From Flavobacteriaceae bacterium (GTDB taxonomy: Bacteria; Bacteroidota; Bacteroidia; Flavobacteriales; Flavobacteriaceae), in contig JALSLK010000103.1 in NCBI GenBank assembly GCA_026988355.1, positions 1-64,000 of the forward strand: DNA of 64,000 bases. Direction: 5' to 3'. The position numbers were made by a program, and so were the translations under genes. Numbering within the stretch: position 1 is the stretch's first letter; every line of letters starts with the position of its first letter. The notes under the pieces were generated by a model that saw only the letters and a program-made list of their open reading frames with translations, ran no database searches and was not told where the DNA came from. Positions 25,054-34,906 of this stretch are shown here, piece after piece.

Positions 25054-25215
25054 ATGAAAACATTAAAGAGATTATTTATTCTAACATTATTTTTAAATTT
25101 ATTTACCTCCTGTACTAATTTTGAAGAATTAGATACAGTTGATGATTCCGAAAATATTGCATTAGTAGATACTGGAGATGAGGGAGAAGAAGTTGATGAA
25201 ACTGAAAAAGATTAG
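25054..25215 (+). CDS. Small acidic lipoprotein, function unknown
   Basis: 53 residues. MKTLKRLFILTLFLNLFTSC is a signal peptide with the lipobox LFTSC (Cys20). The 33 residues after it are strongly acidic (about 16 Asp or Glu) and contain no basic residue apart from one near the end (ETEKD). It sits about 80 bases before the histidine kinase gene, which also starts with a signal and a possible lipobox. A role as an accessory or ligand-presenting factor for that sensor is only a positional guess. Confidence 0.6.
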   Translation: MKTLKRLFILTLFLNLFTSCTNFEELDTVDDSENIALVDTGDEGEEVDETEKD

Positions 25216-25295
25216 CGTATTAGAAATTAATTATCCATAAATATTATTATAGTTAAAGACATTTTCATAGATTTGTTACCAACAATAATTACTTT

Positions 25296-27332
25296 TTGAA
25301 AATAAAAACTATATATAAAAAATGCTTTATATATCTGTTCTTAATTTTCTCTCTACAATATTGTAACTTAAAAAAAGGGGATTTAAAGCAGTCAAATATA
25401 AAAAATGACAGCATTGTTTTGTGGATAAAACATGCTAAGGATACTTCGTATTCAATATCTAAACGTAACTATTTTTTAAAACAATCTTACCATACCATAA
25501 AATTTAGTAAAAAAGATACTTTATCTACTAGAAGATTGGCTTCGATTGCTTATCAATACTTAAAACTTAAGGACACCCTTCGTTTTAAAAAAATAAACAA
25601 AGAAGCCTTTCAATTTGCACAACAACTTAAAGATAGTTTTGCTTTAGCAGACATACATTGGAATAATGCAAATTTTTATAAAAAAAAAGAAATTTACGAG
25701 AAATCGTATTACCATTATAATAAGGCATTTATTTATTTTGAAAATATAAACAAACAATATTTTGCTGCAAAAATGTTGTATGGCATGTCGTTCATTAAAG
25801 GTCGCTTAAGAGATTACTCTGGTAGTGAAATATTAATTATAAAAGCGATTTCTAAATTCGAAGCGTTAAATAAATACAAATCTTTATATTCTTCATATAA
25901 TCATTTAGCGCTTCTACAAAAAGATATAAAAGAGTATGACTTGTCCCTATTTTATAATAAAAAAGCAATTAAATATTTAGATAGAATAAAACCAAATAGT
26001 GAACTTCTAGAAATTAGCTTTAATAATATTGGCATTGTCTATCAAGAAAAAGGAGAATATACAAATGCGATTAAATATTTTGATAAAGTTTTAAAAAACA
26101 CCAATTTAAAGGCTAAAAATATTGGTCGATATGCTAGAATTATTGATAATCTAGCATTTTGTAAATTACTTAATAAGGATACTATTAATATTAAGCATTT
26201 TTTTTATGAATCTTTAAAAATAAGAGATAGTATAAAAAATAAAGGTGGCAAAATTATTGCAAAAATTCATTTAGCAACTTACTATTTAAAAATTAAAGAT
26301 TCTGTAAAATCATTACAATACGCTAAAGAAGCAAATTTATTGGCAAAAAAAATAAATAATAATAGAGACTACTTATCTTCTTTAAAATTATTGTCAAAAA
26401 TAGATGCAAAAAACGCAAATAGATATTTAGAAAAGTATATTATTTATAATGATAGCTTACATAATGCCGAACGAAAGATTCACAATAAGTTTACTCGAAT
26501 TGAATACGAAACAGAGCAATATATCGAAAAAGCAGCTTTTTTATCGCAACAAAAAATGTTTATATTGATTTCTAGTATTGGTATACTTATAACCTTATCT
26601 TTATTTTACATTGTTAAAGTTCAAAAATCTAAAAATAAAAATCTACAATTAGAAACAGAACAACAAAAGGCAAATGAACAAATATATATTTTAACCCTAA
26701 ATCAACAAGAAAAACTGGAAAATGAAAAGAGAATTGAACAAAATAGAATCTCAGAAGAATTACACGATGGTATTCTCGGAAACCTTTTTGGGACACGTGT
26801 TGGTTTAGGTTTTCTAAAATTAAATGGAAGTACAACAACCTTAAACAAATACCAATCTTTTTTAAATGATTTACAAGATATTGAAAAGGAAATTAGAGAT
26901 GTTTCACACAGATTAAATGATAATATTGGTAATATCGAAATTGGTTTTAGCTCTATTATTTACCAACTACTTAATAAGAGAAGTAAAATGGGAAATTTTA
27001 ATAGCGAATTACTTATTAGTGATGAAATTGTATGGGATGATATTAATAAAATAATCAAGGTAAATTTATACCGAATTTTACAAGAAGCGCTACAGAATAT
27101 TATTAAATATGCAAAAGCAAAACAAGTCACATTACATTTTACAATAGAAAACGGCAACTTAATCCTAATTATTACTGATGACGGAATAGGCTTTAACACC
27201 TCAAAACGCAACAAAGGAATCGGAATTAAAAATATTAAATCTCGAGCTGTTAAATTAAATGCCTCTCTCCAAATTAATTCAAGTATTAATAAAGGGACTA
27301 CAATAAACATTGAAATTCCTCTAAATAACTAA
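25296..27332 (+). CDS. TPR sensor histidine kinase
   Basis: 678 residues. The start is TTG: no ATG is near, and MKIKTIYKKCFIYLFLIFSLQYC gives a signal sequence with a possible lipobox at its end. Residues 60-400 form tetratricopeptide-like helical repeats (for example ISFNNIGIVYQEKGEYTNAI) on the outer side. A single membrane helix lies near 421-442. A coiled coil leads to a HisKA_3-type dimerisation domain with His490 in ISEELHDGILGN, then an ATPase domain with EALQNIIKYAKA and DDGIGFN. The response regulator follows 9 bases later and is surely its partner. Confidence 0.88.
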   Translation: MKIKTIYKKCFIYLFLIFSLQYCNLKKGDLKQSNIKNDSIVLWIKHAKDTSYSISKRNYFLKQSYHTIKFSKKDTLSTRRLASIAYQYLKLKDTLRFKKINKEAFQFAQQLKDSFALADIHWNNANFYKKKEIYEKSYYHYNKAFIYFENINKQYFAAKMLYGMSFIKGRLRDYSGSEILIIKAISKFEALNKYKSLYSSYNHLALLQKDIKEYDLSLFYNKKAIKYLDRIKPNSELLEISFNNIGIVYQEKGEYTNAIKYFDKVLKNTNLKAKNIGRYARIIDNLAFCKLLNKDTINIKHFFYESLKIRDSIKNKGGKIIAKIHLATYYLKIKDSVKSLQYAKEANLLAKKINNNRDYLSSLKLLSKIDAKNANRYLEKYIIYNDSLHNAERKIHNKFTRIEYETEQYIEKAAFLSQQKMFILISSIGILITLSLFYIVKVQKSKNKNLQLETEQQKANEQIYILTLNQQEKLENEKRIEQNRISEELHDGILGNLFGTRVGLGFLKLNGSTTTLNKYQSFLNDLQDIEKEIRDVSHRLNDNIGNIEIGFSSIIYQLLNKRSKMGNFNSELLISDEIVWDDINKIIKVNLYRILQEALQNIIKYAKAKQVTLHFTIENGNLILIITDDGIGFNTSKRNKGIGIKNIKSRAVKLNASLQINSSINKGTTINIEIPLNN

Positions 27333-27341
27333 ATAAAAAAA

Positions 27342-28028
27342 ATGACGAAAAATAAAAATTATACGGTATTAATCATTGACGATCATCCAATAATATCGGA
27401 AGCGTATAAAAGCGCTTTTAAACACATTAGTGAACACGATAATACAATCTCTTTTATAATTGATGTTGCTGATAATTGCGATATTGCCTATGAAAAAATT
27501 AAATATTTTGCTAACAATAATAAAATTTTGGATATTGTTTTTTTAGACATGAGACTTCCTCCTTCAAAAGATGGAAAAATTTTATCTGGAGACGATTTAG
27601 GTCTAAAAATAAATAAATTATTACCAGATACTAAAATTATTGTTTCTACCACTTTTAATGACAATTATAGGATTCATAGTATTTTTAAAAGTATTAATCC
27701 TGATGGTTTTTTAGTAAAAAATGACATCACTCCTAGTGAATTAATTACAACTATAAAAACTATTATTAGAGATCCGCCATATTATAGTAAAACTATTATT
27801 AAACTGCTTCGGAAAGAAGTTTCTAATGATTTTTTGCTCGATGAGATTGATAGAAAAATATTATACGAACTCTCTATTGGTACAAAAATGAAAGATTTAC
27901 CTACGATTGTTCCATTATCTATTGCTGGTATCGAAAAACGAAAACGTCACTTAAAAGATATTTTTAATATTGATGGTATTGGCGATAAAGAGTTAATCCA
28001 AAACGCCAAAGATAGAGGTTTTATATAG
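27342..28028 (+). CDS. NarL/LuxR-like response regulator
   Basis: 228 residues. The receiver has an intact acidic pocket (LIIDDHP) and phosphoacceptor Asp69 in IVFLDMRLPP, with the switch lysine in FLVKNDI. The C-terminal part, EIDRKILYELSIGTKMKDLP then SIAGIEKRKRHLKDIF, has the helix spacing of a LuxR-type DNA-binding domain but a divergent sequence. Co-transcribed with the TPR kinase. Its targets are unknown; the peptide locus 550 bases downstream on the same strand is the nearest candidate. Confidence 0.82.
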   Translation: MTKNKNYTVLIIDDHPIISEAYKSAFKHISEHDNTISFIIDVADNCDIAYEKIKYFANNNKILDIVFLDMRLPPSKDGKILSGDDLGLKINKLLPDTKIIVSTTFNDNYRIHSIFKSINPDGFLVKNDITPSELITTIKTIIRDPPYYSKTIIKLLRKEVSNDFLLDEIDRKILYELSIGTKMKDLPTIVPLSIAGIEKRKRHLKDIFNIDGIGDKELIQNAKDRGFI

Positions 28029-28138: not shown

Positions 28139-28350
28139 TAAACTCTTTTTTGATATTGGGTATCTCTTTTTAACTGTCTATGATCTGGTGTAAGTATTTT
28201 TTTTGTATTTCCTATTAGTTTTTATCCTTTTCCTCCTCTATCATAAATTAATTCTTCTGGTGTATATCCTATATTTTCTTCCATTTGATTTAGTAATGAT
28301 TCAATAGTTTTACTGTCGTGTGGATTTCCTTCAAAACTTTTTATGGCTGT
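28139..28350 (-). pseudogene. Remnant of a DDE (IS5-type) transposase
   Basis: Read on the minus strand, the sequence gives NPHDSKTIESLLNQMEEN, then ELIYDRGGKG, an in-frame stop, then KKILTPDHRQLKRDTQYQKR and further stops. The HDSKT and YDRGGKG blocks resemble the catalytic core of IS5-like transposases. Only about 70 codons remain, with stops at 28222-28224 and beyond, so it is dead. No inverted ends were found. It marks old mobile-element activity immediately upstream of the peptide locus. Confidence 0.65.
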
Positions 28351-28354
28351 TATT

Positions 28355-28584: not shown

Positions 28585-29937
28585 ATGAATTACAAATTAT
28601 CAAAATATTTAGTTTTTTCAGAACCAATAATAAATTCTAATTATAGATTAGTTTATTCAACAATTTCAACAACATTGACTTTATTAAAAGTTAATATATA
28701 TGATAAGTTAATAAATAAAGATTTTTTTAGTTTAAAAAACGATAGCATATTTGATAGACTTATTTCTTCAAAAATAATAATTGATAAAACAAGAAATGAA
28801 TTAGAACAAATTATTAAATATAATAAAAAGGCTATAGCAAACGAAAATGTACTATATCAAATAATATCTCCATCTGCAAACTGTCAACTTGGGTGTAATT
28901 ATTGCGGTCAAGTTCATACTAAAAAGTCGCTTGATGATAATTTAAATAAAAAAATTACAGCCAGAATTGCTGTTAATATAACCTTAAAGAAATACAAACA
29001 TTTACATATAGGTTGGTTTGGCGCAGAGCCATTAATGGGTTTGAAAAATATAAAAAAACTAACTTTGGGATTTATGAATTTAGCGAATAAAAATAATTGT
29101 TCTTACTCGGCTAATATGATAACCAATGGCCTTAGTTTAAAAAAAGATATTTTTTTTGATTTAGTCGAAAAATACAAAATCACCAAGTTTGAAATTACAT
29201 TAGACGGAACTCAAAAACATCATGATTTAAGAAGACATACCAAACTAAAAGAAAAAACATTTAGCTTAATTTTCAAAAACTTAAAAAATATTGTCAATGA
29301 CAATCGGTTTGAAAAATCTAAACATAAAATAATTATAAGATGCAATGTTGACAGCTCAAATTATAAAAGCACGTACGATTTAATTAATTTATTGGAAGTT
29401 GAAAAAATATTGGATAAAATCTCATTTTATACAGCCCCAATACATTCTTGGGGAAATGATGCGCATTTAAAATCACTTACACATGAAGAATATTCTGAAT
29501 TTCAAATAGAAACTTTTATTGAATTAATAGATAAAAAACACAAAGTTGTATTATTGCCAGGTATTAAAACTCCGATAGTATGTACAAGTTTATATGAACA
29601 TGCAGAAGTATTTGACACTGATGGAAATGTCTTTAACTGTACAGAAATATCTCAGGTACCTATTTATGAAAATGATGATTCGTTTAAAGTAAAAAAACTA
29701 TATGATGAAACATACACTAATAATAACAGACCTTATTCTTCATGGAATGATGATATCTTAAATGGAGAAGTTCCATGTACGAATTGTGTCATATTACCAA
29801 TTTGTGGTGGTGCTTGTCCAAAACTATGGAAAGAGAATATATCTCCCTGCCCTCCAATTAAATATAATATAAAAGACAGATTATTATTACATTTTTCTCA
29901 AAATAATAGAAAAATATTAAGTAAAAAAAATGTTTGA
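28585..29937 (+). CDS. Radical SAM/SPASM peptide-modifying enzyme
   Basis: 450 residues. The radical SAM cluster motif CX3CX2C is at Cys100, Cys104 and Cys107 (NCQLGCNYCG), with GWFGAEPLMG and the later EITLDGTQKHHD as the glycine-rich and SAM-binding parts. A SPASM domain closes the protein: cysteines near 331 and 350, then Cys398, 401, 407, 411 and 422 (VPCTNCVILPICGGACPKLW), enough for auxiliary Fe-S clusters. This type installs thioether, carbon-carbon or epimer changes in ribosomal peptides. A 47-residue candidate substrate follows 62 bases later. The exact reaction cannot be told from sequence. Confidence 0.88.
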   Translation: MNYKLSKYLVFSEPIINSNYRLVYSTISTTLTLLKVNIYDKLINKDFFSLKNDSIFDRLISSKIIIDKTRNELEQIIKYNKKAIANENVLYQIISPSANCQLGCNYCGQVHTKKSLDDNLNKKITARIAVNITLKKYKHLHIGWFGAEPLMGLKNIKKLTLGFMNLANKNNCSYSANMITNGLSLKKDIFFDLVEKYKITKFEITLDGTQKHHDLRRHTKLKEKTFSLIFKNLKNIVNDNRFEKSKHKIIIRCNVDSSNYKSTYDLINLLEVEKILDKISFYTAPIHSWGNDAHLKSLTHEEYSEFQIETFIELIDKKHKVVLLPGIKTPIVCTSLYEHAEVFDTDGNVFNCTEISQVPIYENDDSFKVKKLYDETYTNNNRPYSSWNDDILNGEVPCTNCVILPICGGACPKLWKENISPCPPIKYNIKDRLLLHFSQNNRKILSKKNV

Positions 29938-29999
29938 TCAACATCTAGGAGAAAGCTGAAAATCCTTAAAGAGTAAGCATAACATTAAATATTTTTAAA

Positions 30000-30143
30000 A
30001 TGAAAAAAATAGAAAAATTAAGAAACGAATTAGATTTAATTCAATTAGAAGACCGATTAGAAATGGTGAATTTAGCTGCTGTAGACACTACTACAACTGA
30101 AACAGCGGGTAATGGCGTATGTTGTTGTAGCGAGGCTAAATAA
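30000..30143 (+). CDS. Candidate RiPP precursor peptide with C-terminal CCC motif
   Basis: 47 residues. The first half (MKKIEKLRNELDLIQLEDRL) is charged and helical like a recognition leader. The end is short and distinct: DTTTTETAGNG then VCCCSEAK, with four threonines in a row and three adjacent cysteines. There is no double-glycine cleavage site. Position between a radical SAM/SPASM enzyme and a membrane protease, small size, and a strong hairpin directly after the stop all fit a peptide precursor. Family not recognised; modification sites are unknown. Confidence 0.75.
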   Translation: MKKIEKLRNELDLIQLEDRLEMVNLAAVDTTTTETAGNGVCCCSEAK

Positions 30144-30150
30144 TTCTACA

Positions 30151-30187
30151 TTAAACCAATGTAAGACTATTTCTTACATTGGTTTAA
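30151..30187 (+). terminator. Hairpin after the precursor gene
   Basis: TTAAACCAATGTAAGA (30151-30166) and its exact complement (30172-30187) form a 16-bp perfect stem with a five-base loop, 7 bases after the precursor stop. The T tract is weak, so it may be a partial terminator or an mRNA-stabilising end that gives more precursor than downstream enzyme. Confidence 0.65.
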
Positions 30188-30242: not shown

Positions 30243-31388
30243 ATGGAAAAGACAATTGATAATTTTGTAAATACCTTAGAATTAAGTGATAATACAGAAA
30301 AGTATACTTTAATTTACTTAAACAAAAGCTATTATATAAAGAAATTTTTATATGATTTTTTTTTAATTGCAAAAAAAAAAAATTTTAATACTGCAATCAA
30401 TAAGCTAAAAACCAATAATAATTTATCCGATATTGAATTTGAATCTCTAAAAAAATCCATTAATAATGTGATTGAAGAAATAGTTAATAGTGAAGAAAGT
30501 AAAAAATATATAAACTACTCAATTGTTCTATTTTCTAAAAATTTGGTTAATCACTTCTCGAATAAGCTTACTTGGTTATTTCATAAAAAAATTTTCATAA
30601 CATTAATATTAATGTCAATTTCCGTTAGTGTTTACATATTTTTTTTCTATCCTTTAAATGTTAAAATATCTAATGTCTCAATTCTTGAAACTGTAGCAAG
30701 TTATATTATCATTTTTACAATTTTAATACTACATGAATTTGGTCATGCCTCTTCATCAGCATACTATAAAATTAAACCCGAAGAAATTGGCTTTGGATTT
30801 TACTTGATATTTCCTGTTCTTTTTGCAAATGTGACCAAAATATGGAAACTAAAACGGAATCAAAGAATTGTAGTTAATTTGGCTGGAATATATTTTCAAT
30901 TAATTATTAATATTCTCTTATTCATATTTTTTATACTAATTGGAAGTAAAAGCTCCTACATACTAAGCATCATGAAAATTAATATTTTGGTAGTCTTATA
31001 CTCACTAATCCCTTTTATACGAAATGATGGATATTGGATTTATTCCGATTATTTTGACATCCAAAATCTCAATCAAAAATCCAATACATTTTTTTATCAA
31101 CTATTTAAGAGAATCATTCGAAAAGATAAAACAGTCAACTTTTCATTAGCTCTAATAATATACAGCTCAGGAAATTACGCTTTTTTAGGATATATCATGT
31201 ATAAATTTATTTTAAAATTTCCAGAAACAATTAATGAAATTATATATATCTTTAATGAAAATGGAGCAAAATCAATACTAACAAATCACTTTGGTCTAAT
31301 AATTAAACTTTTAATATTTGTTTTTCTAAGTAGCATAATTTATAAATCTATAATTTCTTGGTTTAAAGAAATTTTAAAATCTAGATAA
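30243..31388 (+). CDS. M50-like membrane metalloprotease of the peptide locus
   Basis: 381 residues. About 115 soluble N-terminal residues, possibly a peptide-binding region, precede five or six membrane helices. The zinc site HEFGH is at His164-Glu165-His168 and a second conserved NDGYW near residue 261 supplies the aspartate ligand, as in site-2-type proteases and YydH-like proteins of peptide operons. It would cut the modified precursor in or near the membrane. AAAGAGGAAA 11 bases upstream is a ribosome site. Next gene begins 1 base after its stop. Confidence 0.82.
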   Translation: MEKTIDNFVNTLELSDNTEKYTLIYLNKSYYIKKFLYDFFLIAKKKNFNTAINKLKTNNNLSDIEFESLKKSINNVIEEIVNSEESKKYINYSIVLFSKNLVNHFSNKLTWLFHKKIFITLILMSISVSVYIFFFYPLNVKISNVSILETVASYIIIFTILILHEFGHASSSAYYKIKPEEIGFGFYLIFPVLFANVTKIWKLKRNQRIVVNLAGIYFQLIINILLFIFFILIGSKSSYILSIMKINILVVLYSLIPFIRNDGYWIYSDYFDIQNLNQKSNTFFYQLFKRIIRKDKTVNFSLALIIYSSGNYAFLGYIMYKFILKFPETINEIIYIFNENGAKSILTNHFGLIIKLLIFVFLSSIIYKSIISWFKEILKSR

Positions 31389-31389
31389 C

Positions 31390-32526
31390 ATGAAAAAAGA
31401 ATATTTTAAAAACATAAAAGAGGTAATTGAAAAATCCTCAAAAAGAGCTTCATCAGTATTGGATATTAATTCTAATGAACGACTAAATTATTTAAAATTT
31501 AAATCTGCTTTTAACTATTTATATCCCATTATTAAAGGTAGTAAAAATGATTATCGAGAATATTTAATTAATAAAGAGTTAACAAGTCTAGAAATTAATT
31601 ACATCCATTTACTAGAGAAAAATGGATTTTCCAGTCATAACGGAATTAAAGATCTAGGGGATACTCCAAATATTTTTTGCTCATTTCATATGGGATCCTA
31701 TATTTCAGTTTGCTATTATTTGGTGAAAAATAATATTACCTTTTCAATCGTAATGGGAGAAGAAAGTTTTAATGAAAAAAAAGAAATGTTTCTATTTGCA
31801 TATAAAAAAACTTTAAGTGTATTAAAAAACTCAACCTCAAAAATAGATTTCATTAATGGAGAAAAAAAAAATTCGATTATATCAATGATAAAATCTACAC
31901 GAAAAGGAAAAAGTTTACTTTTTTATATTGACGGAAATAAAGGAGTTAAAGAATTTGACAATAATGATGATAATCTAGTTGAAATAGACTTTCTAAATGT
32001 GAGTATATATTCTAGAAAAGGCATATCCTACCTGTCAAATTACCTAAAAATAAATATTATTCCAATTATTTCATATAGAGAGTCTCACAACAAAATTAAA
32101 GTTAATTTCTTAGATCCTATTTCTTATGAAGGAAACGATCGAGAAAAATATTGTTTAGAAACTACTCAAAAAATTTGGAGTCAATTTTTAGTATATTTTA
32201 AAAAATATCCACTACAATGTGAATCCATTTACTATATCAATCAATTTAGAAAACCATATTTTCAAAAAAAAGATAAAGGATTTAATATTAAAGACATCTT
32301 TAGATTTAATTCTAATAGATATGAGTTTTATCAATTGGATAAAAAAATAATCTATGACAAATATAATGGTTTATCAAAAAAACTTTCTGATGGTTATTCT
32401 GATTTCTTATATAAAATTCATCAAAAAAATATTGAATTATTAGGCTCTGATTTAATGGCAATAATAAATAATAAGGCTATCATAACTACATTAGTTGAGA
32501 ATGAATATTTAATAAAAAACAATTAA
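31390..32526 (+). CDS. LpxL/HtrB-like acyltransferase-fold protein
   Basis: 378 residues, no signal peptide. The middle resembles lysophospholipid acyltransferases: PNIFCSFHMGSYISV carries the block-I histidine (His100), LLFYIDGNKGV (Asp181-Gly182) matches block II/III, and INIIPIISYRE the block IV. The usual HX4E/D dyad is altered: the sixth residue is Ile105 instead of an acid. It therefore may use another base, bind lipid without catalysis, or have a new reaction. Its start is 1 base after the M50 gene stop, so the two are translationally coupled. It could lipidate the peptide. Confidence 0.65.
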   Translation: MKKEYFKNIKEVIEKSSKRASSVLDINSNERLNYLKFKSAFNYLYPIIKGSKNDYREYLINKELTSLEINYIHLLEKNGFSSHNGIKDLGDTPNIFCSFHMGSYISVCYYLVKNNITFSIVMGEESFNEKKEMFLFAYKKTLSVLKNSTSKIDFINGEKKNSIISMIKSTRKGKSLLFYIDGNKGVKEFDNNDDNLVEIDFLNVSIYSRKGISYLSNYLKINIIPIISYRESHNKIKVNFLDPISYEGNDREKYCLETTQKIWSQFLVYFKKYPLQCESIYYINQFRKPYFQKKDKGFNIKDIFRFNSNRYEFYQLDKKIIYDKYNGLSKKLSDGYSDFLYKIHQKNIELLGSDLMAIINNKAIITTLVENEYLIKNN

Positions 32527-32610: not shown

Positions 32611-33678
32611 ATGAAAAAAAAAATCAAAATTCTTTTAAAACTCTTATTAACCGCATTATTAATTTGGCCTGTATATTATTTCATCACTAAAAAAAATGCA
32701 CAAGAAGAGACTTATATCACAAAAAAACTTCAAAAAAGAGATCTAAAAAATTTCATTATTTGTTCTGGTATTATTTTACCAAAAGAAGAAGTAGAAATCA
32801 AATCTAGGGTTTCTGGTGTCTTAGAAAAAATTTATGTAAAAAATGGAGATAGTATCCACAAAAATCAAATTATTGCAAAAATAAAAATCATTCCAGATAT
32901 AGAACGTTTATCCTCTTCTCAAATAGAAATAAATGTAGCAAAAAATCGCTTCAATAATAAAAAAGCAATTTACAATCGTAACAAAGAATTATTCGAAAAA
33001 GGAATTGTAGCAAAATCAAAATTCGAAATAATAGAAACCGATTATTTGAATGCACTAGAAGACTTAAAAAACACAAAAAGAACCTATCAAATTGTTAAAT
33101 CAGGAAATTATAGTGGAGGAACAACAAATACGTCTATTGTTTCGACAATAGATGGTGTAGTAACATTATTACCCATAAAAGTTGGTTCTTCTGTAATTCA
33201 AAGTAATAACTTTAGTGAAGGAACAACTATCGCAAAAGTTGCAAATATTGACGAAATGATTTTTGAAGGAAATGTAAAAGAATATGAAGTTGCAAAACTT
33301 ACCAAAGGCATGCCTGTCAAAATAGCTACGGCAATAAGTGACAAAGAAGAAGATGGTATACTCTCCGAAATATCAACTAGTGGTAAAAACACGGATGGAT
33401 TAATATTATTTGAAATAAAATCCAAATTGACAAACTCAAAAATTAGAAAAACAGGATTTAGTGCAAATGCAAAAATTATCATTAAAGAGAAAAAAAATAT
33501 TTTATGTTTAAAAGAAAAATGGATTACTTTTAGTAATGACACCTCTTACGTATACATTCATAAAAATGATGATAAATATGAAAAAAGAGCAATTAAACTC
33601 GGTATTTCTGATGGTGTTTATACCGAAGTTATTTCTGGAATAAAAGAGAATGAAAGCATAAGAATATATGATAACTAA
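32611..33678 (+). CDS. Periplasmic adaptor (MacA/HlyD family)
   Basis: 355 residues. A single N-terminal membrane helix (ILLKLLLTALLIWPVYYFI) anchors it. A lipoyl/barrel-sandwich half motif (VEIKSRVSGVLEKIYVKNGDSIHKNQ without the full run) is followed by a helical hairpin around residues 105-165 and the second half (STIDGVVTLLPIKVGSSV), then beta-barrel and membrane-proximal domains. It overlaps the permease gene by 11 bases, so they form a MacA/MacB-type pair for export across the envelope. A TolC-like partner must come from elsewhere. Confidence 0.85.
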   Translation: MKKKIKILLKLLLTALLIWPVYYFITKKNAQEETYITKKLQKRDLKNFIICSGIILPKEEVEIKSRVSGVLEKIYVKNGDSIHKNQIIAKIKIIPDIERLSSSQIEINVAKNRFNNKKAIYNRNKELFEKGIVAKSKFEIIETDYLNALEDLKNTKRTYQIVKSGNYSGGTTNTSIVSTIDGVVTLLPIKVGSSVIQSNNFSEGTTIAKVANIDEMIFEGNVKEYEVAKLTKGMPVKIATAISDKEEDGILSEISTSGKNTDGLILFEIKSKLTNSKIRKTGFSANAKIIIKEKKNILCLKEKWITFSNDTSYVYIHKNDDKYEKRAIKLGISDGVYTEVISGIKENESIRIYDN

Positions 33679-34906
33679 AGATGAAATAATTGAAATAACG
33701 GAAACGCTAAAAAAAAACAAATCCAGAACGCTTCTTACCGCTTTTGGTGTTTTTTGGGGAATTTTTATGCTATTATTATTGTTAGGTTCTGGAGATGGAT
33801 TGGAAAAAGGAGTTACGAATATGTTTAAAGGATTTGATATTAATAGTTTTCATATTTATAGCGATAAAACTAAGATTCCATACAAAGGCGTAAAAGACAA
33901 TCGAAAAATAAGAATTACAAATGAAGATTTAGATATTATCAAAAAAAAATTTAAAAAAAATATTAAATATATTGGCGCAAGATCGTATACATATAATGCA
34001 ACTTTAGTACAAAATAATAGGCAGAATGAAAAATACGAAATATATGGTGTAGAATCTGATATTTTTTACATCCGAAATGTGAAATTAAATGCTGGTAGAT
34101 ACATCAATAAACTTGATAATAATCGGAGTAGACTTGTTGCAGTAATTGGATCTAAAGTTAAAAAAGAATTATATAATAATAAAAATACAATTGGTAAGTT
34201 TATTCAAATTAATAATAGTTTTTATAAAATAATTGGCGTTTTTAAGTCTTTAAAAGAAGGAGAAGAAGCAAATGAGCAAAACAAAACTATTATAATTCCA
34301 CACACATCGTTTCAAAAAAATTTTAATAGAAAAAATACAATGGACAACATTGGTATTGTTGCTACAAATAACAAAACCGAACGTCAAATTTTAAGTTTTT
34401 TAAAAGAGCGTCATAAAGTACATCCAGACGATGAAGCAATTTATACATGGAATACCAGAGAAGAATTTTCAAAATATACTGGATTATTTAAAGCAATTAG
34501 AATGTTTATGTGGATTATTGGTATTGGAACATTATTATCTGGAATAGTTGGTGTTAGTAATATCATGGTAATAAATATAAAAGAAAGAACCAAAGAAATA
34601 GGAATTAGAAAAGCAATTGGAGCAAAACCTTTTTCTATTATAAAAATGATTATTTTAGAATCTGTTTTTCTAACGAGTATTTCGGGTTATCTGGGTTTAT
34701 CTTTTGGCTTATTATTAATTGAAGGTGTAAACTATTCCTTAAATTTATTTGATTTAAAAAGTGGTTTTTTTTTAAATCCAGAAATTAATTTATTTGTAGT
34801 AATATCGGCAATTCTCACACTGCTATTGTCAGGTTTCTTTGCAGCGTACCTTCCTGCAAAAAAAGCAGCAATGATTAGACCAATTGAAGCACTCCGAGAA
34901 AATTAA
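33668..34906 (+). CDS. MacB-type ABC transporter permease
   Basis: 412 residues. One N-terminal helix (FGVFWGIFMLLLLLGSGDG), a large periplasmic MacB_PCD domain, then three FtsX helices with the coupling segment IVGVSNIMVINIKERTKEIG and GIRKAIGA. No ATPase domain is present and no separate LolD-like ATPase is encoded beside it. It overlaps the adaptor gene and ends in a small hairpin, so it is the last gene of the peptide locus. Likely exporter or extrusion module for the mature peptide. Confidence 0.85.
   Translation: MITKDEIIEITETLKKNKSRTLLTAFGVFWGIFMLLLLLGSGDGLEKGVTNMFKGFDINSFHIYSDKTKIPYKGVKDNRKIRITNEDLDIIKKKFKKNIKYIGARSYTYNATLVQNNRQNEKYEIYGVESDIFYIRNVKLNAGRYINKLDNNRSRLVAVIGSKVKKELYNNKNTIGKFIQINNSFYKIIGVFKSLKEGEEANEQNKTIIIPHTSFQKNFNRKNTMDNIGIVATNNKTERQILSFLKERHKVHPDDEAIYTWNTREEFSKYTGLFKAIRMFMWIIGIGTLLSGIVGVSNIMVINIKERTKEIGIRKAIGAKPFSIIKMIILESVFLTSISGYLGLSFGLLLIEGVNYSLNLFDLKSGFFLNPEINLFVVISAILTLLLSGFFAAYLPAKKAAMIRPIEALREN

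What the first reader, a model, noticed from the sequence alone, without database searches (positions are those of the whole stretch)
30000..30143. 47-residue precursor ending in CCCSEAK after a Thr-rich linker
Seen: a complete short frame between the modifying enzyme and protease, with a charged helical leader and TTTT plus CCC near the end. No GG leader-cleavage site is present, so an M50 route is plausible. Three adjacent cysteines would be an unusual substrate for thioether-forming enzymes and could instead carry lipid or metal.
Basis: partly seen in the sequence, partly recalled or inferred. Interest (0 to 1): 0.8.

Follow-up and report, generated by a model that had tools for sequence, protein, structure and literature searches.

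The report
Cysteine-rich RiPP precursor with M50 protease
The short gene is a real precursor of a modified bacterial peptide: relatives in other Bacteroidota keep its recognition tag and its paired cysteines, and they sit beside the same radical-SAM enzyme, membrane protease and acyltransferase-like gene, which points to an unstudied kind of cross-linked, perhaps lipid-carrying, secreted peptide.

Summary
ORF 30000-30143 encodes MKKIEKLRNELDLIQLEDRLEMVNLAAVDTTTTETAGNGVCCCSEAK. It is a RiPP precursor, not a chance frame. A Tenacibaculum locus carries a 65%-identical radical SAM/SPASM enzyme and five tandem homologues, four ending VCCCSDP[KQA]. Three further Bacteroidota genomes carry 3-6 copies each with an LEERLEM leader and a CC core. 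dN/dS is 0.17-0.31 against the CCC copies.

The leader and protease go together. In this rSAM family every locus with an LExRLE[ML] leader has an M50 protease (9/9); GG-leader loci have a C39-ABC exporter instead (0/12 with M50).

The invariant core is CC followed within five residues by Asp/Glu; the third Cys and the Thr linker are not conserved. I infer a ranthipeptide-like Cys-Asp/Glu thioether. A LpxL-like acyltransferase homologue is present in all five members of this rSAM subclade, so lipidation is a live possibility; its canonical catalytic acid is missing. No metal evidence was found.

Unexpectedly, a DUF805b RNA element (E=2e-8) lies 20 nt before the start codon, and a hairpin follows the gene. 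Across 46 extracted copies, DUF805b shows a covarying pseudoknot and precedes RiPP precursors and secreted proteins.

The parts
28585..29937 (+). Radical SAM/SPASM peptide maturase, TIGR04463-like (CxxxCxxC plus complete SPASM cysteines)
   Evidence: best NCBIfam TIGR04463, 185.7 bits (cutoff 525); TIGR04085 SPASM 35.3 bits; Pfam PF04055; cysteines invariant in A2; closest solved relative 5wgg
29946..29979 (+). DUF805b RNA element (RF02914) in the 5' leader of the precursor, with a GCU/AGC pseudoknot
   Evidence: 37.4 bits, above gathering 35.6, E=2e-8; pseudoknot covariation
30000..30143 (+). Precursor peptide, 47 aa: leader with LEDRLEM (residues 16-22), core near GNGVCCCSEAK
30151..30187 (+). 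16-bp hairpin between precursor and M50 gene, probable attenuator or 3' stabiliser
   Evidence: -19.4 kcal/mol, z -8.6; equivalent hairpin after the Tenacibaculum CCC precursors (z -8.35)
30243..31388 (+). M50 intramembrane metalloprotease (HEFGH, NDGYW), related to daptide and YydH/LiaK proteases; proposed leader peptidase
   Evidence: PF02163 35 bits; NF041824 90 bits (cutoff 300)
31390..32526 (+). LpxL-like (Lip_A_acyltrans) homologue without the canonical HX4D/E acid; proposed peptide acyltransferase; C-terminal ~80 aa has RRE-like topology
32611..33678 (+). HlyD/MacA-type periplasmic adaptor
   Evidence: TIGR01730 113 bits over cutoff
33668..34906 (+). MacB-type permease without its own ATPase gene in this cluster
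   Evidence: PF12704, PF02687; ATPase present in Tenacibaculum L012 13900-14574, nearest in this genome elsewhere

Best explanation
30000-30143 encodes the precursor of a ribosomally made, radical-SAM-modified peptide. The N-terminal helix with LExRLEM is the recognition tag (inferred from invariance). The SPASM enzyme at 28585-29937 acts on the CC(C)x[D/E] tail, most likely forming a Cys-to-Asp/Glu side-chain thioether as PapB does (inferred, about 50%). The M50 membrane protease at 30243-31388 cuts off the leader (inferred from the leader/protease coupling and from MpaP, YydH and LiaK kin). The LpxL-like protein probably acylates the peptide or its leader-bound form before export (speculative, about 40%). 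HlyD and MacB then move the product across the envelope, using an ATPase encoded elsewhere (inferred). The stated confidence is for the core claim: modified-peptide precursor, rSAM-modified, leader removed by M50.
For: Homologues with invariant LExRLEM and CC beside the same rSAM, M50 and LPLAT-like genes in five genomes including this one; these form one rSAM clade (99/96 support). dN/dS well below 1. Leader/protease coupling 9/9 versus 0/12, Fisher p=3.4e-6, ignoring relatedness. Cys within 2-5 residues of Asp/Glu in all CC cores but one; PapB accepts Cys-Xn-Asp/Glu with n=0-6. NCBIfam relatives of the rSAM include PapB, CefB, Clo7bot and the geopeptide maturase. MpaP is reported as an RRE-dependent intramembrane leader peptidase. 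The LPLAT profile hit only this locus in 276 genomes of the order, so it looks dedicated to such loci.
Against: The fifth Tenacibaculum peptide (LCSCCGISGSSN) lacks an acidic partner after its cysteines, so a thioether to Asp/Glu is not universal. The rSAM misses the cutoff of every named maturase family. No chemistry was observed. The LpxL-like protein lacks the HX4D/E acid. The RRE comparison was inconclusive. No ATPase lies in the cluster.
Confidence: 0.82

Rival explanations
1. The rSAM makes alpha-carbon (sactionine) or Cys-to-other-residue links, or another modification, rather than Cys-Asp/Glu thioethers.
For: One paralogue, LCSCCGISGSSN, has no downstream acid. GG-type relatives have CNSGC, CTVNNSC and CGTNDCW cores with mixed neighbours. 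The rSAM is far below every family cutoff.
Against: An acidic residue 2-5 positions after the CC pair is kept across four genera despite otherwise changing cores.
Confidence: 0.4
2. The main role of the cysteines is to carry a fatty acyl chain added by the LpxL-like protein, with the rSAM acting elsewhere.
For: LPLAT-like gene in all five subclade members and also with M50 and dedicated fatty-acid-synthesis genes in L053.
Against: L053 precursors mostly have no Cys, so acylation there cannot be on Cys. The catalytic acid is missing.
Confidence: 0.2
3. The CCC tail binds a metal (metallophore or metal sensor).
For: Three adjacent cysteines only.
Against: The third adjacent Cys is lost in other genera, and there is no metal-uptake or regulator gene in the conserved core.
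Confidence: 0.05
4. The frame is a spurious ORF.
For: No family hit in Pfam, NCBIfam or PHROGs.
Against: Tandem homologues in other genomes and purifying selection.
Confidence: 0.01

Closest known systems
Epipeptide (YydFGHIJ) and LiaK-type operons
   Same: rSAM next to a no-GG precursor, an M50-type protease (NF058609 49 bits) and an ABC exporter (operon make-up from own knowledge)
   Different: SPASM-type rSAM of another branch, Cys-rich core, LpxL-like gene, HlyD and MacB in a Gram-negative
Ranthipeptides (PapA/PapB freyrasin, SCIFF/CteB)
   Same: SPASM rSAM related to PapB and CteB; Cys followed by Asp/Glu at 2-5 residues
   Different: One compact CC(C)x[DE] site at the C-terminus, LExRLEM leader, M50 instead of C39
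TIGR04463 'rSAM versus C-rich' RiPP maturases
   Same: Best NCBIfam hit along the full length
   Different: 185.7 bits versus 525 cutoff; some relatives use GG leaders and C39-ABC
Daptides (MpaP protease)
   Same: M50 relative NF041824 (90 bits, cutoff 300)
   Different: None of the other daptide enzymes; different leader and core

Membership tests
RiPP precursor | Short leader-core peptide encoded beside its modifying enzyme, leader conserved | tested here: met
RiPP precursor | Post-translational modification and leader removal in the product | not testable with these tools
   needs mass spectrometry
Double-glycine (GG) leader peptides | GG/GA cleavage site with C39 protease-transporter | tested here: not met
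   No GG site in the peptide; no C39 in the cluster, while sister loci have both
TIGR04463 equivalog | Score above curated cutoff 525 | tested here: not met
   185.7 bits
Radical SAM/SPASM enzymes | CxxxCxxC and SPASM cysteines | tested here: met
Ranthipeptide | Cys with Asp/Glu at short spacing in the core | tested here: met
   not in one paralogue
Ranthipeptide | Non-alpha-carbon thioether in the product | not testable with these tools
   needs mass spectrometry
M50 metalloprotease | HExxH and distal DG motif in membrane segments | tested here: met
   HEFGH and NDGYW conserved; PF02163
LpxL-type acyltransferase | HX4D/E catalytic motif | tested here: not met
   His invariant, sixth position I/L/F/R in six homologues
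RiPP recognition element (RRE) on LpxL-like protein | PqqD-like three-strand, three-helix fold | tested here: inconclusive
   Topology seen in the confident part of one model; domain-alone model poor; hhalign and PDB profile searches weak
DUF805b RNA (RF02914) | Score above gathering threshold | tested here: met
   37.4 versus 35.6 bits

The most novel reading that the evidence does not exclude
A new RiPP class in Bacteroidota, defined by an LExRLEM leader shared across different chemistries (rSAM, squalene-cyclase-like proteins, fatty-acid synthesis), processed by M50 proteases and often lipidated by a repurposed LpxL-like enzyme, so that the peptide here is both radical-cross-linked and acylated.
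Probability: 0.35. Interest if true: 0.8.

Novelty: new variant of a known kind. Interest (0 to 1): 0.6.

Why it matters
It defines a RiPP leader family that no library used here recognises, shows a natural swap of leader and protease type within one radical-SAM family, and suggests a route to peptides that are both thioether-bridged and lipidated in Gram-negative bacteria. The upstream RNA element also links an orphan Rfam motif to secreted-peptide expression, which makes its function directly testable.

Tried and rejected
BLAST of the precursor alone in 60 relatives gave only noise. The LpxL-like structure model was poor overall (pLDDT 45), and its fold searches were meaningless. Modelling the C-terminal domain alone was worse. 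Profile comparison of the three putative RRE regions was weak. PDB profile searches with the LPLAT and precursor alignments found no usable match. Plasmid searches found only remote rSAMs and no precursor. Papers: nothing held on DUF805 with riboswitch, or on TIGR04463, and the original DUF805b paper is not held. The idea that a cognate ATPase lies in the cluster was rejected: the nearest one (64%) belongs to a complete separate ABC set. Metal binding was rejected for lack of any conserved support.

Full report
Observation. It lies between a radical SAM/SPASM gene and an M50 protease gene. No protein family library used recognises it.

Is it real? Single-sequence BLAST in relatives gave noise, so I went through the enzyme. 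The rSAM found one 65%-identical protein in a Tenacibaculum contig (L012). That locus has five tandem homologues of the peptide, four ending VCCCSDP[KQA] and one LCSCCGISGSSN, and then, in the same order as in the window, M50, LpxL-like, HlyD and MacB genes; it also has a TPR gene and an ABC ATPase that the window lacks. A profile of these peptides, and the rSAM, then led to three more Bacteroidota genomes with tandem copies: G687 (3), G860 (6) and G887 (3). All have LEERLEM leaders and NYCCTGSD or GCCSFTD type cores. dN/dS (NG86) is 0.17-0.31 between the window peptide and the CCC copies, 0.41 against the divergent CSCC copy, and 0.06-0.18 between the copies of G687, G860 and G887.

Leader and protease. 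Mapping related loci shows two architectures inside one rSAM family. Peptides with a GG site sit beside a ~730-aa transporter with a C39 peptidase domain (nine transporters tested, nine positive). Peptides without GG but with LExRLE[ML] sit beside an M50 protease in all nine loci. In L054 the M50 gene was missed by my ORF filter and was found by tblastn. No locus has both; 9/0 versus 0/12 gives Fisher p=3.4e-6, though related loci are not independent. In the rSAM tree, the window, L012, L096, L052 and L081 form a supported clade (99/96), and the M50 label needs three changes in all against 7.6 in shuffles. This is the best evidence for the M50 protease as leader peptidase. The related daptide protease MpaP is reported to remove the leader (PMC10036551).

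Core. Across four genera the constant part is a CC pair followed within 2-5 residues by Asp or Glu; the third adjacent Cys and the Thr run are not constant. The enzyme scores best to TIGR04463 and, more weakly, to Clo7bot, CefB, geopeptide and PapB maturases, all below their cutoffs. PapB joins Cys to Asp/Glu over spacings of 0-6 residues (PMC9413430). A ranthipeptide-like link is therefore the most likely chemistry, but it is inferred; the divergent Tenacibaculum paralogue has no downstream acid.

LpxL-like gene. 31390-32526 is a distant Lip_A_acyltrans homologue. It occurs in all five members of the subclade. It also occurs in L053, which has 14 tandem LEQRFEM precursors with a different, mostly Cys-free core, an M50 gene, and AMP-binding, ketosynthase and ketoreductase genes but no rSAM. 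A profile of it hits only this locus in 276 genomes of the order. Its His is invariant but the HX4D/E acid is absent. Its C-terminal ~80 residues were the only confident part of a model and have strands followed by three helices, like a leader-binding RRE; profile comparisons did not confirm this. Peptide lipidation is thus a reasoned possibility, not a result.

Regulation. A DUF805b RNA (RF02914) covers 29946-29979 above the gathering score, and weaker versions precede the four CCC-type Tenacibaculum copies, three of them listed by Rfam. The genome has about a dozen strong DUF805b copies; nearly all start 48-57 nt before an ATG, mostly of signal-peptide proteins. In G687, G005 and Tenacibaculum they also precede GG-leader RiPP precursors, in tandem arrays. 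I noticed that the triplet before GAAAA pairs with the triplet after GAGTA and covaries: UCC/GGA, GCC/GGC, ACC/GGU, CCU/AGG, CUC/GAG, GGU/GCC, GCU/AGC. 137 of 184 cells pair against a shuffle mean of 93 and a maximum of 108 in 10,000 (a few of the 46 extracted sequences are spurious, and related copies are not independent). The Rfam model line printed by cmscan does not show this pairing; whether its authors already drew it I could not check. A strong hairpin follows the precursor here and the CCC precursors in Tenacibaculum, as expected for an attenuator giving excess precursor (inference).

Verdict. This is a real RiPP precursor of an unrecognised leader family, with M50 processing well supported, thioether chemistry likely, and lipidation possible.

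Noticed in passing
window 29946-29979; L017-L028, L099-L128: DUF805b RNA shows a covarying 3-bp pseudoknot between its loop and the triplet after GAGUA, and sits 48-57 nt before start codons of secreted proteins and GG-leader RiPP precursors genome-wide.
   Followed up: partly
L053 8065-9739: Fourteen tandem precursors (MNLQELDLQELEQRFEMTAAAE...) with M50, LpxL-like, Rce1-like and fatty-acid-synthesis genes but no rSAM; a probable lipopeptide RiPP.
   Followed up: partly
L091 8000-16040, L054 1600-9410, L093 8578-14178, L098 10070-14932: LExRLE[ML] precursors (cores KVCWIG, KICWLA, or Gly-rich) beside rSAM and M50, with a squalene-cyclase-like protein in L091, L054 and L093 and a P450 in L091 and L054.
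   Followed up: partly
window 32611-34906; L134 (G000:C9): HlyD and MacB permease genes lack an adjacent ATPase; Tenacibaculum has one in place, and this genome's nearest (64%) belongs to another complete ABC set.
   Followed up: yes
window 28219-28353 (-): Relic of what looks like an IS transposase (ITAIKSFEGNPHDSKTIESLLNQMEENIGYTPEELIYDRGGKG) just upstream of the rSAM gene.
   Followed up: no
window 25054-28028: A 53-aa lipoprotein-like ORF followed by a TPR-containing histidine kinase and a response regulator, directly before the cluster; not seen beside the Tenacibaculum cluster.
   Followed up: no
L087 12386-13693, L088 12178-13467: Five tandem GG-leader-type peptides with repeated C...NxCW motifs beside the same rSAM family and a C39-ABC transporter.
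   Followed up: no
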